A stretch of 46,848 bases of DNA from Okeania sp. SIO2F4. GTDB lineage: Bacteria > Cyanobacteriota > Cyanobacteriia > Cyanobacteriales > Microcoleaceae. The first letter of the stretch is position 1; every line of letters begins with the position of its first letter. The stretch covers positions 1 to 46,848 of the forward strand of contig NZ_JAAHGT010000001.1 of the NCBI RefSeq assembly GCF_010672385.1, in the 5' to 3' direction. Under the pieces are notes generated by a model. It made no database searches. It saw only the letters and a program-made list of their open reading frames with translations, and was not told the origin of the DNA. Shown piece after piece: positions 9,358 to 17,574 of this stretch. The position numbers were made by a program, and so were the translations under genes.

Positions 9358-9469
9358 TTTGGCTTTTGACTTTTGACTTTTGACTTTTAACTTCGGTGAA
9401 ACGGTATTATGATTCAATATAAATAGTTTTTGTCAATCTGTGCCAAAGAATCTAAAATCAAATATTATT

Positions 9470-11860
9470 ATGAGTAACAAAACAGGGCAAACTACCCTTT
9501 TAAACAGTAATCCCTATATAGAATTAAATAATCAAGGCCAAATTATCACTCTCCAACTGACACAAGACAATCATATATTAGGACGCGATCGCCTCCGTGC
9601 CGATCTAGTAGTACCTTCAGATTGGTTAGTTATCTCTAGTTATCACGCTGTCATCCAGAAAATTGACGATCGCTACCATATTTATGATGGCGATGCTTAT
9701 CGAGCAAGCACTAACGGATTATTTCTCGACCGCACCCGCATTACTCCATCTGAAGGTCATCTGTTGCAAAATGGTATAGAAATCAAAATCGGTCTCGACC
9801 CCCAAAACCAAATCCTGCTCAAATATTTTGAACCAAATAATCCTGTAGCTTTAGCATCTTTGCCAAAAACGCGCTCAATATCTTTGCAAGATAGATCGGT
9901 GTTACTTGGTCGCGATCCTGATGCCAATCTAGAATTAGATGCTGCCATTGTTTCTCGTCGTCATGCCACTATTGAACCGAATGGTCAAGGTAATTACATT
10001 TTACGAGATTATAGTACCAATGGCGTTTTTGTCAATGAGATGCGGGTTAAAAATACTATTGTTCTGACTGACGGAGCAGTAATTAAAATCGGACCTTTTA
10101 CTCTCATTCGTCGTGGCGATAATTTGGAAGTCTTCGACCCTGGCAACCAAATTCGTCTTGATGCCGATCGCCTCTACAGAATAGTCAGAGACCAACGGGG
10201 AAAGACACGAGTTTTGCTAAATGATATCTCTTTCGCGATCGAACCGGGGCAGTTTGTTGCTTTAGTGGGAGGAAGTGGAACTGGGAAGTCTACTTTGATG
10301 CGAACATTATTAGGAATAGACCCTACAACTAAAGGCAAAGTTTATATTAATGGTGAAGATTTAAGGAATAATTTTAATATTTATCGGACTCAAATTGGTT
10401 ATGTTCCTCAAGACGATATTATTCATCCAGAATTAACAGTATCGGAAGTTTTAACTTATGCTGCAAAGTTGCGCTTACCTCCCGATATTAATGTTAAAGA
10501 AGTAGTCGAAAAAACCCTCGAACAAATAGAGATGACAGAGAGAAGAAATGTATTAGTTAGTCAGTTAAGCGGAGGGCAAAGAAAAAGAGTAAGTATTGGG
10601 GTGGAATTATTAGCAGATCCGAAATTATTTTTCTTAGATGAACCGACATCTGGACTCGATCCAGGATTAGACAAAAAAATGATGCAGCTATTAAGAAAGT
10701 TGGCAAATCAAGGACGAACAATTATCTTAGTTACCCATGCCACAGCTAATATTAGAATTTGCGATAGGGTAGTATTTTTAGGTAGAGGTGGGCGCTTATG
10801 TTACTTTGGTTCTTCTAGAGAAGCTCTAAATTTTTTCTCTGTAAATACTGGAGACTTTGCTGATATTTACAATGAACTAGAAACCAGTGATGAAAATGTC
10901 AATGAATGGGTAAATAATTTTCGTCAATCAGAATATTATCGGCATTATATTTCCAATCATCTGAGTATCGATAATTTAAAATCTCCTACTAACTTACCTC
11001 CCAAACAACAACCAGCTTCTTTTTGGCAACAACTATTTATTTTAATTCAACGATATTTGAAATTAATTTTCCGCGACCCGATTAATTTAGGTTTAGCTTT
11101 ATTAACTGCTCCTATTGGCATTGGTTTAATTTTATTTGCAGTTAGAGATAAAAATCCATTGATTGGCGACCCAGAACCTACTTTAGCTCCTTTAGCTTTG
11201 CGAGTATTATTTGTATTTACTTGTGCCTGTTTATGGGTTGGTCTTTCTAGTTCCCTGCAAGAAATAGTCAAAGAGTCAGCTATTTATATTCGAGAAAGAT
11301 TGGTGAATTTAGGATTATTTGCTTATCTCGGTTCAAAAGTAATAGTTTTGGGATTATTAGCAATTTTCCAAACTCTATTAATAGCAGGAGTAATTATCCT
11401 GGGATTTGAAAGTCCCCAGCCAGAATTAATTTCATGGGAAATAGGAGTTAGTATTACTACTTTTTTAACTTTAATAAGTTGTATTAGTCTGGGATTAATG
11501 ATTTCCTCTATTGTTAAAAATGGTTCTCAAGCTAATAGTGCTTTACCCTTAATATTGTTGCCTCAGATTATTTTTTCTGGTGTTTTATTTGAGATGACAG
11601 GTATAGCTAGTAAATTTTCTTGGGTAATGTTAAGTCGTTGGTCTGTAGCTGCTTATGGGGCGCTGGTAAATGTTAATGAAATGGTGCCAGAACCAACTAA
11701 ATTACCAGACGGAAGTACCGTTCCATTACCATTTTCTGGTTCAGATGTTTATAACCTTAATTGGGAAAATTTAGGTTTAAGTTGGGGAATTTTATGTTTA
11801 CATTCGCTGATTTATTTAGTTTTAACTATTTGCTTTCAGAAGAGAAAAGATATTATATAA
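9470..11860 (+). CDS. ABCG-type ABC transporter with two N-terminal FHA domains
   Basis: One chain of about 796 residues, numbered here from the alternative GTG start at 9440 (806 residues). FHA domain 1 spans about 46-115 (GRD, SSYHAVI, TNGLFLD) and FHA domain 2 about 155-220 (GRD, SRRHATI, STNGVFVN); these bind phosphothreonine peptides. A nucleotide-binding domain follows: Walker A GGSGTGKS (277-284), signature LSGGQ (376-380), Walker B LFFLDEP (396-402), H-loop H433. From about 555 come six hydrophobic helices of the ABC2 type. As a half-transporter it should dimerise and export an unknown, probably lipophilic, substrate. The FHA pair suggests control by Ser/Thr phosphorylation, and kinases lie 7 kb away. 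ATG 9470 is preferred to GTG 9440, as neither has a clear ribosome site. Confidence 0.9.
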   Translation: MSNKTGQTTLLNSNPYIELNNQGQIITLQLTQDNHILGRDRLRADLVVPSDWLVISSYHAVIQKIDDRYHIYDGDAYRASTNGLFLDRTRITPSEGHLLQNGIEIKIGLDPQNQILLKYFEPNNPVALASLPKTRSISLQDRSVLLGRDPDANLELDAAIVSRRHATIEPNGQGNYILRDYSTNGVFVNEMRVKNTIVLTDGAVIKIGPFTLIRRGDNLEVFDPGNQIRLDADRLYRIVRDQRGKTRVLLNDISFAIEPGQFVALVGGSGTGKSTLMRTLLGIDPTTKGKVYINGEDLRNNFNIYRTQIGYVPQDDIIHPELTVSEVLTYAAKLRLPPDINVKEVVEKTLEQIEMTERRNVLVSQLSGGQRKRVSIGVELLADPKLFFLDEPTSGLDPGLDKKMMQLLRKLANQGRTIILVTHATANIRICDRVVFLGRGGRLCYFGSSREALNFFSVNTGDFADIYNELETSDENVNEWVNNFRQSEYYRHYISNHLSIDNLKSPTNLPPKQQPASFWQQLFILIQRYLKLIFRDPINLGLALLTAPIGIGLILFAVRDKNPLIGDPEPTLAPLALRVLFVFTCACLWVGLSSSLQEIVKESAIYIRERLVNLGLFAYLGSKVIVLGLLAIFQTLLIAGVIILGFESPQPELISWEIGVSITTFLTLISCISLGLMISSIVKNGSQANSALPLILLPQIIFSGVLFEMTGIASKFSWVMLSRWSVAAYGALVNVNEMVPEPTKLPDGSTVPLPFSGSDVYNLNWENLGLSWGILCLHSLIYLVLTICFQKRKDII

Positions 11861-12238
11861 TTAACAATTAATAATTAATAATTAATATTATGTCCGGTAT
11901 AGCCCAGTAGTGGACTGACACATCTAAAATGGTGCAATAGTAGGGGCGGGTTCCCTGTTAAATTAACGAGTTTAACCAATAGATGAAATAAACCCGCCCC
12001 AAAATTTAACGCACTACTTCTATTTGGTTTCAAAAACAGAAAGATATTATATAGGAATCGTTAATGATTTGTGAAAAAAACTGTAGGGGTTTGGTTTCCA
12101 AATCCTATTTTTGCTAGGGTTGGGAGATTAAACCTCTGTTATCAGAAACCGGGTTTGTTGTAGGTTAATATTATGATAACGAGGCATTTAATACAAACCC
12201 GGTTTCTCTGCTTTTTTTGGGGTTTGGAGACCAAACCC
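11861..12238. repeat. Repeat-filled intergenic region
   Basis: It holds an ATGTCCGGT end like the MITE family (11889), a GGGGCGGGTTCC...AACCCGCCCC inverted pair (11943-12000), GTAGGGGTTTGGTTTCCAAA (12082), and the inverted pair GAAACCGGGTTTGT / ACAAACCCGGTTTC (12148-12208). The last is related to pairs near 29577-29643 and 32909-32969. No gene is seen. Confidence 0.5.
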
Positions 12239-12880
12239 CTACGATTGAAACTGCTGTAATAACCAAGTATAAACTTGAGTTTGATTTGTTTGACGAGTGC
12301 GCTGAAGTGCTTCCTCTAATAAATAAATATCTAACCCAGGCAAAACTTGAGACCGATCGATTTTTCTACTACCACCATCAGCAACAGTAAAGGCAATAAT
12401 TTCTGCATTCTGCACATCAACTATCCAATATTCAGCGACATTAAGTGTTTCATAAAGCAAACGTTTTTCCCCTATATCATCAGGAAAAGAAGTATTAGCA
12501 ACTTCGATAACTAGAGTTGGTGGAGGATAAATATCCAGGTCAATAAAAGAAATTTCCCAAGGAATGACATCTGCATTTTCCCTAATGTAATAGGAAGCAT
12601 CAGGTTGAGCTGCTCGAAATCCTTTTTTGTGGTAGGTACAGTTATCTATACCATTCAGGGCAATATTTTTAGTGGCAGCAAATAAAACAATTGCACCCAT
12701 AATAACTGCATGGTCTCTACCATGTTTGTTTCCTAATGGTGACATTTCTATTCTGAGTTTTCCTTTGTGGTAGTAAACTTTGGCTTTTTCGTAACTTGGG
12801 TCTTCAATAGTTTGGATGTATTCTGACCAAGTTGCTGTTATCCAAGTGTCTGTGGGTAGTTGTGTTTGGTTTTTGTTCAT
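12239..12880 (-). CDS. Uma2 family (DUF820) putative endonuclease
   Basis: A 213-residue protein with the PD-(D/E)XK-type Uma2 fold. Visible features are the early KGKLRIEMSPLGNKHGRDH segment, QPDASYYI (catalytic-type Asp), and PPTLVIEVANTSF (catalytic-type Glu) followed by DDIGEKRLLYETLNVAEYWIVD. These are the conserved blocks of the family that is greatly expanded in cyanobacteria and usually annotated as Uma2 endonuclease; its biological role is not established. It starts at ATG 12880 and reads away from the ABC transporter. Two further Uma2 genes lie at 38802 and 40807 and are quite different in sequence, so these are not recent duplicates. Confidence 0.85.
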   Translation of the reverse strand: MNKNQTQLPTDTWITATWSEYIQTIEDPSYEKAKVYYHKGKLRIEMSPLGNKHGRDHAVIMGAIVLFAATKNIALNGIDNCTYHKKGFRAAQPDASYYIRENADVIPWEISFIDLDIYPPPTLVIEVANTSFPDDIGEKRLLYETLNVAEYWIVDVQNAEIIAFTVADGGSRKIDRSQVLPGLDIYLLEEALQRTRQTNQTQVYTWLLQQFQS

Positions 12881-13104: not shown

Positions 13105-16100
13105 CTAGGTTGTTTTTGATTCCACTATTTTAATTTCCTCTTCTGTTAATTTATAGAGTTGATAAACTAATTGGTCTATTTCTGTTTCTAGTGCTGTTGT
13201 ATCAGCATTAGGATTGGATTTTTTTGTTGTGAGTATTTTATCAACTATTTCTATAAAAGGAATTTGCTCCTGTAAATCAATTGGGCAAAACGGTAACATT
13301 CCTACATGAAATGCTTTTACTTGTGCTAGAGCTTCGCCTTTTTCAGGATTAATTGCAGTATAAAAAAAATCTATTAGCTTAGTATTTAAAATACCTAGTA
13401 AGTATTTCAGGTTAAACGTTTCATTTTTTTTAAGAATAATATGAGTATTATCCCGTATAATAAATCCAGATTGAATCAATGTACCAATTATGCGATCGCT
13501 AGTCTGTCTAAAAATTAGTTTTTCATCAGCTTTGAAAATTGATTCTTGTCTTGGAGCTGCCAGCCATTTTCCATAACTAATCCAAAAATTATTATTCCAT
13601 AAAATGACATACTTATTAAAGTAACGACCACCTATTAATGGCTGAAAAGTTGAGTCTAATTTTACCTCACTGGTATAAGGCTTTTGACTCACTATCTTTT
13701 TCGTTTGTGGTGGAAAACCTTTACCTACTTCATAAGGTTTGACACCATTTTTTATTTGAAAATAATCTTTGACTAAAAATGAATTTGAGCGAATTTTATC
13801 TAAAATGAATAGCTCCTTTTGACTAAGAGAAAAATTGAAGAAGTATTGTTTAGACAAACTTTCATTTGACATAGTAATTGTGCTTTGAATCAAATCTTTA
13901 CTTCTCTGGTTAGCTTGCAATATATAGCTGGGAATTTTATTTTTCTGTATAAGCATAACGTCACAATCTACTGTTGCTTCATCAAATACTTTTGTTTTAA
14001 ACTCATCTATACATATCAAACAAAATTCCCCGATTAAGCTCTGCCTAAAATCATAAGCTGAATCAATTAATTTCCAAGTATTGGGAATTATATAAGATAG
14101 ATAACCATAAGGCTTTAAAATATCTTTCAAACCTAACAAGCAAAATGTAAAGTAACTGTCTTTTAGTAAATTATTCATGCCTAGTGTTTTGTACTTCTTA
14201 AGCAAAATAGCCCACTCAAACTTTGAAGGTAATACTCCATAAGGTGGATTACCAATAACCACATCAAACCCTACAAAATCTCCATTGTCATTCAATACTT
14301 CGGGAAATTCAAATCGCCATTCCAAAGCATTCTCATAAACCTTACCACTTTCTATTTCTGCAATTTCAACTCTTAATTTATCAATCTGATTATTCAACTT
14401 AACAATCTTTTTCTCTCTAGCTTTTTTTTTCAGCCTTTGTTTCCTCAAATAATGACAATTGATTTTTATTCACTAGATCGTCAACTTCATACTCTAAATT
14501 TCTCAACTTTTTTTTCTTGGGGTCTGTTCCTTGAAGTGTTGTTCTAAAATTACCTTTAATATCCTGAATCAACTTTTCCATTTCTCGCTTTTGCGGTTTA
14601 CTGTCAGTACGACGATAAATTTGTACAGCATTCCGATAACTTTCAATATTCCATTTATTTTTCTTTAAAGCTTGTCGTAAATCAGAATCTAAACCATAAC
14701 GACTAATCAAAGAATTGCCACACTTGATATTAATATCAATATTCGGTAAAGTTTCTAATTCGTAGGAACATTGCATGGAACTTTCGTACTGTTTATAATA
14801 AGCATTTTTCAAAAGCTCTATCCATAACCGTAACTGACAAATTTTGACATAATTAGGATTAATATCTACCCCAAACAAACAATTTTCAATAATTGTCTGT
14901 TTTTCGTGAAAAATGGCTTCTTGTACTCGTTGACATTCTTGATTATTCGGATAATACTCAAACAATTCTCCATGATCATCAGTAATTACTAACTCATCAT
15001 TAACTATAGCAACTTGATAATCTCTCAATGTTTTTCCTTTTCTGTCTAATAAAATTTTCAATTCGCTTTTTATAGCAATAATTTCATTGAGAGCAGAAAC
15101 TAAAAAATGCCCTGAACCTACTGCAGGGTCACAAACTTTTAAACTATTAATAATTTGATTAGCTTCCTTTTTATCTGTAATTTTGTCATAAAGTTGCTCA
15201 AGATTTTGACAATTCCAACTTTTAATATCGTTAAACTTCTGTACCACGGCTCTACTAATTGTTTCACGACACATATACATAGTAATAAAACCAGGAGTAA
15301 AATAAGAACCATCTTTATAACCATTAATTTTCTCAAAAATCAACCCCAATACAGAACCATTAATTAGAGTTTTATTATCTTCTTGAATTGCTTCCGAACC
15401 TTCGCTGCTAAAATCATAAGCATTGAGAAACTCAAATAAATATTGTAGAGAATTAAATTCACCTTGACATTTTTTACCCTGACTATCTTTGAGAACCGTT
15501 TCCGAAAAAATAGGCATTTTTTCCTCTGTCAGATTACTAATAAATATAGTTTGCTGTTCCATTTCTGTTGGCTCAAATAAGGAACTATTCAAATAAGGAA
15601 CCTTAGCAAAAATATCTTTTTCCTGACCCTGGCGATCGCTATATTTTCGAGCCAATACATTAAAGAAGAGATTATTTAATTCCTGATAGCTTGGTACTTT
15701 TTCCCAATTCAAAAACGCAAAACAGCGATCGCCTTTATGATAATTAATTAATTGAGCTTCCAGTAACTTAATAAACAGAATTCTGTTAATCCAAGTTATC
15801 ACTAACTCTAAACTGACATTAAAAAGTTGCTCTTCCGAATTTTCTCCATATTGCTCTGATTTTTCTAGTCTAGAAATTTTATCTAAACTATCAAGCTGAA
15901 AAATTGCCTTTTCTATAAGTGAACCTCGGTTTCGTTTATTTTCTGTTTGACGCTGGATAAGTTTTTTATTAGCTTTTTTAATTTCTGTGAGACCAATAAT
16001 ATGAAGTAGTTCGCCGTAAAATTTTTTATCCAGACTATTACTATCATTAGCAAAAGGTAATTTTAATAGATGCTCTGGAGAAAGTAATTTATATAAAACG

Positions 16101-16765
16101 ATTAATTGTTTGTCATCTTGGGTTTCTCTACTTTGTAAATAGGTTTGATATTCTCTAATATCAAACTGAGTAAACGTAATTTCACTTTTAATACTTTCAA
16201 TAGCTGGTTGAGCAATTTCTCTGTAGAAAAAGTCAGTTTTTTTACCTGTTAATCTTCCTGCCGCAAAGTCATGGAATTGTTGAACTAAACTTTTATCTTG
16301 AATAAAGTATTTCTCAAATGATTGAGCATCAAAAATGAACCATTGATAAACATTAGTAGCTACTAGATATTTGATTTCTAGGTTATTTTCTTGGAAACGT
16401 TCCCGCAAAAAGTACAATAGCAACTCTTGAAATGCTTTAGCATTCAGGTTATCGACTTTGAGCATTTCTTTTGTATTGGTTGGTTTCTTAATTTATAGTA
16501 TTAGATTTACATTACTTTTCGGGTCTTTGCCATTATGAATCACTAAGTAATTTTGCCCTTTTGTGTTGATAAAATGATTTTTTTTGTAAAAAGTTTATTG
16601 TAAAAATTGGGAAATGATATTTTTATGAAATTCCTCTGATTCTGCTTCGTTAATTTGCTCTAAAAGTAACTTCAGATTGTGTTTAAATTTTTCAATATCT
16701 TGCCTACTAGGTTTGACCCTCAAATATGCTTTATTTAATGCTTTTATAGGTGGAATTAAGTTCAT
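13105..16765 (-). pseudogene. Type IIG-like restriction-methylation enzyme, broken (DUF7149 / Eco57I-type)
   Basis: Read in one frame from ATG 16765, the N-terminus (MNLIPPIKALNKAYLRVKPS) matches my memory of DUF7149 starts. In-frame TAA stops follow at codons 57 (16597-16595) and 91 (16495-16493). The frame continues through the nuclease-type stretch to the ORF 16465-14417, which holds methylase motif I (CDPAVGSGHFL). After an A9 tract (14422-14430) the frame shifts into 14448-13105, which holds motif IV (GNPPYG) and the target-recognition part. Intact, the enzyme would be about 1,215 residues, combining cleavage and N6-adenine methylation. Stop 2 sits where I expect the catalytic Glu of the ExK motif, and the expected Asp reads Tyr (QNYLVIH). 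The two downstream ORFs may still be expressed as a split methylase. Confidence 0.8.
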
Positions 16766-17106
16766 TTTTTGAATATAAAATTATATAGAAGTATGAAATG
16801 ATTTGTGAAAAAAACTGTAGGGGTTTGGTCTCCAAATCCCATTTTTGCTTGGGTTTAGAAACTAAACCCCTACGATAAAATGTTACAACCTATTTAATGA
16901 ACCACACAAAAAAATGATAACCTTGTAGGGACGTTTAGCTGGCGCACAACTTCGTTAACGCTGCGCGACATGAAACGCATTTTTGCCTGTGCAACGTTCC
17001 TACTCTCCCATTTCCTACTCCCTACTCTCCCATTTCCTACTCCCTACTCTCCCATTTCCTACTCCCTACTCCCTACTCCCTATTCCCTACTCCCTACTCC
17101 CTAATT
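16766..17106. repeat. Intergenic repeats with CTCCCTA heptamers
   Basis: The stretch holds a GTAGGGGTTTGGTCTCCAAA palindrome (16815-16875), a GTAGGGACG...CGTTCCTAC element whose core contains CATGAAACGC (16926-17002), and a long CTCCCTA/CTCTCCCAT heptamer-like run (17001-17103) that abuts the EVE gene start. No gene is seen. Confidence 0.6.
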
Positions 17107-17574
17107 ATGAAATATTGGCTAATAAAATCAGAACCTAAAACTTACAGTATCTCAGATATGAAACAAGAAAAAACTTGTATCTGGGATGGAGTAAGAAATT
17201 ATCAAGCACGGAATTTTCTCCGACAAATGAATCAGGGAGATTTAGCATTTTTCTATCATTCTAATACTATACCTCCTGGAATTATTGGATTAGTAAAAAT
17301 CTTAGAAAGTGGCATTCCTGACCCTACTCAATTCGAGCCAGAAAGTAAATATTACGACCCGAAATCTACTCCTAATGCACCTCGGTGGCAAACTGTTTCT
17401 GTAGAATTTGTAGAAGAATTTCCTAAGTTAATATCTTTAGCTGATTTGAAACAACAATTTACTGGAGATGAATTATTAGTTGTGAGGAAAGGAAATAGAT
17501 TATCTGTAATGCCTGTTGCTGAAAATGTGGCAGAGAAAATTTTAGCTATAAAAGATAATTTTTCGCCAAATTAA
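17107..17574 (+). CDS. EVE domain protein
   Basis: A 155-residue single-domain protein matching the EVE (PUA-like) family from end to end: the opening YWLIKSEP, the WDGVRNYQARNFL block (26-38), FFYHSN (48-53) and IIGLVKI. EVE domains bind modified bases in nucleic acids by analogy with eukaryotic YTH and thymocyte nuclear protein 1. The bacterial role is not settled, and some are linked to modified-DNA restriction. Length is typical. It lies divergently about 340 bp from the broken restriction-methylation gene, a link worth noting but not proof of a shared function. The start codon directly follows a CTCCCTA microsatellite. Confidence 0.88.
   Translation: MKYWLIKSEPKTYSISDMKQEKTCIWDGVRNYQARNFLRQMNQGDLAFFYHSNTIPPGIIGLVKILESGIPDPTQFEPESKYYDPKSTPNAPRWQTVSVEFVEEFPKLISLADLKQQFTGDELLVVRKGNRLSVMPVAENVAEKILAIKDNFSPN

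What the first reader, a model, noticed from the sequence alone, without database searches (positions are those of the whole stretch)
16493..16765. Restriction part of a single-chain R-M enzyme knocked out by two in-frame stops, one at the expected catalytic Glu
The frame from ATG 16765 to 16465 has no indels and keeps a DUF7149-like protein sequence (e.g. FINTKGQNYLVIHNGKDPKS), but has TAA at codons 57 and 91. The second reads L-stop-IKKPTN where relatives, from memory, have LExK(K)PTN; a G-to-T change of GAA would do it. The expected Asp is Tyr. Loss of cutting with methylase frames left open could mean a retained methylase or simple decay.
Basis: partly seen in the sequence, partly recalled or inferred. 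Interest (0 to 1): 0.7.

Follow-up and report, generated by a model that had tools for sequence, protein, structure and literature searches.

The report
Dying single-chain restriction-modification gene
A cyanobacterial gene that once encoded a combined DNA-cutting and DNA-methylating defence enzyme is broken by two stop codons and a frameshift, and a relative in another genus has the same stop at the cutting site's key residue; this is mostly ordinary gene decay with one odd coincidence.

Summary
The minus-strand frame from ATG 16765 encodes a DUF7149 nuclease domain with TAA at codons 57 and 91 and Tyr at codon 73. Codon 91 is the catalytic Glu of a D...ExK nuclease: 121 of 122 homologues compared have Glu there, and the exception is another dead copy. 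The whole gene (16765 to about 13105) is a Type IIG single-chain restriction-modification enzyme.

A run of nine A's (14422-14430; the relative has eight) shifts the frame and separates MTase motif I from NPPY, and conserved MTase positions are also changing. As assembled, the gene can make neither activity.

An orthologue at the same locus in another genus (G018) is even more broken and carries the same TAA at codon 91. A third species keeps a 69-nt remnant. The two copies differ at dN/dS 0.25, so most divergence accumulated under constraint and a long-dead shared stop is hard to accept. Coincidence (roughly 1-3%) or a recombined tract remain possible. In the window, nuclease codons decayed faster than the rest (p=0.004, post hoc), a hint that the nuclease died first. 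Mostly ordinary decay.

The parts
13105..16765 (-). Type IIG R-M pseudogene (DUF7149 nuclease - DUF7814 - Eco57I/MmeI-type N6-adenine MTase - TaqI_C specificity domain), about 1220 conceptual residues
   Evidence: Pfam, PADLOC REase_MTase_IIG, 69-72% identity over full length to intact homologues
16466..16765 (-). remains of the first 100 codons of the nuclease (DUF7149) domain, containing both stops
16595..16597 (-). in-frame TAA, codon 57 (not shared with the G018 copy, which has GAT)
16547..16549 (-). TAC (Tyr) at codon 73, where homologues have the catalytic Asp (121/121) and the G018 copy has GAC
16493..16495 (-). in-frame TAA, codon 91, at the catalytic Glu of the ExK motif; the same TAA is in the orthologue of G018
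14417..16465 (-). 682-aa open frame: rest of DUF7149, DUF7814, MTase motif I; ends at TAG just after the A9 run
15104..15130 (-). MTase motif I DPAVGSGHF
14422..14430 (-). A9 run (T9 on + strand) where the G018 copy has A8; frame shift that splits the MTase
13105..14448 (-). 447-aa open frame: MTase NPPY motif and TaqI-like target recognition domain
12046..12137 (.). copy of a dispersed repeat (45 matches in the genome) on one side of the R-M / Uma2-like segment
16780..16871 (.). second copy of the same dispersed repeat, 85% identical, directly upstream of the R-M gene

Best explanation
[quoted passage not shown] When intact, the N-terminal PD-(D/E)XK nuclease (DUF7149) cuts DNA near sites that the C-terminal TaqI-like domain recognises and the central N6-adenine MTase methylates. 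In this genome the nuclease is dead: two TAA stops, one at the catalytic Glu, plus Asp73 to Tyr. The MTase is also broken, by a frameshift in a nine-A run between motif I and NPPY. Shown: the lesions, the domain identity, the conservation of the lost residues, the syntenic dead copy in another genus, and near-complete loss in relatives. Inferred: loss of both activities, and that the nuclease part lost its function before the methylase part.
For: Domain calls and PADLOC Type IIG model at E 1.8e-238 for an intact homologue. Nuclease domain model with pLDDT 90.6, best solved neighbour the Type IIG enzyme BpuSI, Z 9.2, then HsdR of EcoR124I and DrdV. D, E and K conserved in essentially all of 122 homologues. 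Frameshift at A9. Conserved positions in codons 431-776 altered 10/173, control mean 1.25%. Same locus empty, or holding only a 69-nt decayed remnant, in related species, and the G018 orthologue is itself shredded. Codons 1-90 changed at 7 of 50 conserved positions against 5 of 188 in codons 92-850, Fisher p 0.004, post hoc.
Against: The 682-aa and 447-aa frames are still open, and coding constraint is visible between the window and the G018 copy (dN/dS 0.25). If the A9 call is an assembly error, an N-truncated MTase of about 1120 aa would be open from 16465. Several homopolymers of 8 or 9 inside other long ORFs of the window leave those frames intact, which speaks against systematic error but does not exclude one.
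Confidence: 0.85

Rival explanations
1. Retained methylase: the nuclease stop at codon 91 is old and shared with G018. An N-truncated MTase is (or was until recently) made by re-initiation at ATG 16465 (codon 101) and kept under selection. The A9 frameshift is recent, or bypassed by transcriptional slippage, or an assembly error.
For: Same TAA at codon 91 in two genera at the same locus. Synonymous divergence is lower in codons 92-850 (dS 0.20) than in codons 1-90 (about 0.46, from the counts) or the flanking genes (0.34-0.39), as if a TAA-bearing 3' tract were shared by recombination. Constraint in 92-850 (dN/dS 0.23). Window codons 1-90 decay faster than the rest. Slippage at homopolymers is documented in bacteria (PMC5009743, PMC4256274; titles and abstracts seen, papers not read).
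Against: The MTase is frameshifted, and 10/173 of the most conserved positions around it have changed. G018 codons 1-90 are nearly unchanged at conserved positions (1/50) although they lie upstream of the same stop. A change point just upstream of the stop is only weakly supported (p 0.024 for all sites, 0.23 for third positions). The G018 copy is itself destroyed.
Confidence: 0.15
2. Origin of the shared stop, compatible with the best explanation: independent stops. Both lineages had a working gene until recently and each acquired TAA at codon 91 by chance during separate decay.
For: dN/dS 0.25 between the copies, 0.18 in codons 1-56; G018 nuclease codons look nearly functional apart from the stop. 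Window and G018 lesions otherwise differ: codon 57, Asp73 and the A run.
Against: A single G018 stop coinciding with a window stop has a chance of roughly 1.3% (codons 1-182) to 2.9% (codons 1-95) under a simple mutation model.
Confidence: 0.45
3. Sequencing or assembly error produced the stops and the frameshift.
For: The genome is a draft in 1512 contigs; the frameshift is in a homopolymer.
Against: Two substitution-type stops plus a catalytic Asp change; the codon-91 stop is found independently in another genome. Excess changes at conserved positions are not an indel artefact.
Confidence: 0.05

Closest known systems
Type IIG restriction-modification enzymes (BpuSI, DrdV, Eco57I, MmeI; PADLOC REase_MTase_IIG PDLC03612)
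   Same: Order nuclease - linker - N6-adenine MTase - TaqI-like specificity domain in one chain; intact homologues carry D...ExK and NPPY.
   Different: Here the nuclease carries two stops and a lost Asp, and the MTase a frameshift; neither activity can be made as assembled.
Phase-variable Type IIG enzyme Cj0031 of Campylobacter jejuni (PMC4889913)
   Same: Type IIG gene switched off by a homopolymer length change.
   Different: There a poly-G tract switches reversibly; here a single A8/A9 difference sits beside two stop codons, so tract length alone cannot switch the enzyme.
Orphan (solitary) methyltransferases left after loss of the nuclease (general knowledge)
   Same: The nuclease part is dead at the catalytic residue.
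   Different: The methylase here is itself frameshifted and decaying.

Membership tests
Type IIG R-M enzyme (ancestry) | Nuclease, N6-adenine MTase and target recognition domain in one chain | tested here: met
   Pfam DUF7149 + DUF7814 + MmeI_Mtase/Eco57I + TaqI_C in collinear order; intact homologues of about 1220-1270 aa in one frame
Type IIG R-M enzyme (ancestry) | PD-(D/E)XK nuclease fold at the N-terminus | tested here: met
   Model of homologue L035; BpuSI Z 9.2 over 150 residues, HsdR and DrdV next; middling Z and weak Foldseek E-values, but supported by the conserved D, E, K
Type IIG R-M enzyme (working) | Catalytic Asp and Glu present | tested here: not met
   Tyr at 73, TAA at 91
Type IIG R-M enzyme (working) | MTase motif I and NPPY in one reading frame | tested here: not met
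   Frameshift at A9, 14422-14430
Retained (orphan) methyltransferase | Open MTase frame after nuclease loss | tested here: not met
   Split into 14417-16465 and 13105-14448
Retained (orphan) methyltransferase | Methylation of the target site in the cell | not testable with these tools
   Needs long-read methylome data
Phase-variable Type IIG enzyme | Reversible length change of a homopolymer is enough to switch the enzyme | tested here: not met
   Two in-frame stops remain whatever the A-run length

The most novel reading that the evidence does not exclude
The stop at the catalytic Glu is a shared derived state: a nuclease-dead, re-initiated or read-through methylase was kept under selection across two genera for a time, perhaps passed on by recombination, before each lineage broke it separately.
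Probability: 0.15. Interest if true: 0.45.

Novelty: new member of a known kind. Interest (0 to 1): 0.27.

Why it matters
Decay of R-M genes is common. This locus catches a single-chain enzyme part-way through loss, with a second genus showing the same stop at the same catalytic codon and a third species reduced to a 69-nt remnant. Once more genomes of these genera are available, it could be used to test whether single-chain enzymes lose the nuclease before the methylase.

Tried and rejected
A second or intact copy of the gene in the window's own genome: none. Further copies carrying the codon-91 stop: none among 62 genomes of the family or 391 of the order (protein searches with stops counted), no closer DNA relative among 390 of the class, none in viral contigs by exact pattern. 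Shared ancestral stop with neutral decay afterwards: disfavoured, since G018 codons 1-90 have 1 changed conserved position of 50 where roughly 13 would be expected under neutrality, or about 6 if only half the branch were neutral (my rough estimate). The deficit of nonsynonymous changes in codons 1-90 taken alone depends on the transition/transversion ratio assumed (P 0.002 to 0.12). Systematic homopolymer error: other runs of 8-9 in long ORFs leave the frame intact. Papers on DUF7149: none held.

Full report
What is there. The minus-strand frame from ATG 16765 reads 122 residues (to 16400) with TAA at codons 57 and 91. With X at the stops it matches Pfam DUF7149 (E 3e-44). The next frame, 16465-14417 (682 aa), holds the rest of DUF7149, DUF7814 and the first half of an Eco57I/MmeI-type methyltransferase. 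The frame 14448-13105 (447 aa) holds the second half and a TaqI-like target recognition domain. The two halves meet at a run of nine A's (T9 on the + strand, 14422-14430), after which the first frame ends at TAG. MTase motif I (15104-15130) and NPPY (14236-14262) lie on opposite sides of it.

What it was. Intact homologues of about 1220-1270 aa occur in many cyanobacteria and Bacteroidota, up to 72% identical over the full length (L035, Trichormus sp. NMC-1). An intact homologue hits the PADLOC Type IIG enzyme model at E 1.8e-238. The nuclease domain of L035 was modelled from 60 sequences (pLDDT 90.6); its best solved neighbour is the Type IIG enzyme BpuSI (Z 9.2), followed by HsdR of EcoR124I and DrdV. 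In 122 homologues, Asp at position 73, Glu at 91 and Lys at 93 are practically invariant.

How broken it is. The nuclease has two stops and Tyr for Asp. The MTase is frameshifted. At positions conserved in at least 95% of 83 homologues, the window departs at 5 of 36 in codons 1-90, 1 of 32 in 92-180, 2 of 92 in 181-430, 10 of 173 in 431-776 and 0 of 20 in 777-850; the homologues average 1-3%. In the stretch comparable with the G018 copy, at 90% conservation, codons 1-90 changed at 7 of 50 and codons 92-850 at 5 of 188 (Fisher p 0.004). I chose this split at the codon-91 stop after seeing the data, so the p value is a guide only. It hints that the nuclease part lost constraint first.

The locus in relatives. 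In the window the neighbours are an FHA-domain ABC transporter gene (9440-11860), a Uma2-like gene (12239-12880) and an EVE-like gene (17107-17574); these three family names are my reading of the sequences and were not searched. G018, of another genus of the same family, has the same neighbours (the Uma2-like gene reduced to a trace) and an orthologous R-M gene 88-94% identical in DNA. It has lost several internal stretches and carries the same TAA at codon 91, but not the codon-57 stop, with Asp73 and an eight-A run. G004, G005, G012, G023, G027 and G030 have no trace of the gene between the flanking genes. G001, of the window's genus, has a 69-nt, 75%-identical remnant of the 3' part in the right orientation.

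The shared stop. Window and G018 differ at dN/dS 0.25 (bootstrap 0.17-0.35) over 457 codons, and 0.18 in codons 1-56; intact pairs give about 0.07-0.25 in the first 180 codons. G018 codons 1-90 changed at 1 of 50 conserved positions. If TAA at codon 91 were ancestral and the upstream codons neutral since, many more changes would be expected. The chance that a lone G018 stop coincides with a window stop is about 1.3-2.9% under a simple model. A third possibility is that a 3' tract with the stop was passed by recombination: synonymous divergence is lower in codons 92-850 (0.20) than in codons 1-90 (about 0.46) or the flanks (0.34-0.39), but a break at codon 88 has only weak support. I cannot decide between these.

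Verdict. Best reading: a Type IIG gene in decay, in a group of species that have largely lost it.

Noticed in passing
12046-12137 and 16780-16871: Direct copies (85%) of a dispersed repeat, with 45 matches in the genome, bracket the Uma2-like gene and the R-M gene; they could have helped insertion or deletion of the segment.
   Followed up: partly
16999-17099: Tandem repeat CCTACTCTCCCATTTCCTACTCCCTACTC between the R-M gene and the EVE-like gene.
   Followed up: no
L176 (G012 locus): The same interval in G012 carries two copies of the Uma2-like gene (91-92% DNA identity to the window) and no R-M gene.
   Followed up: no
L184 positions 192-260 (G001): 69-nt remnant of the R-M gene's 3' part directly upstream of the EVE-like gene, with two in-frame stops.
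   Followed up: partly
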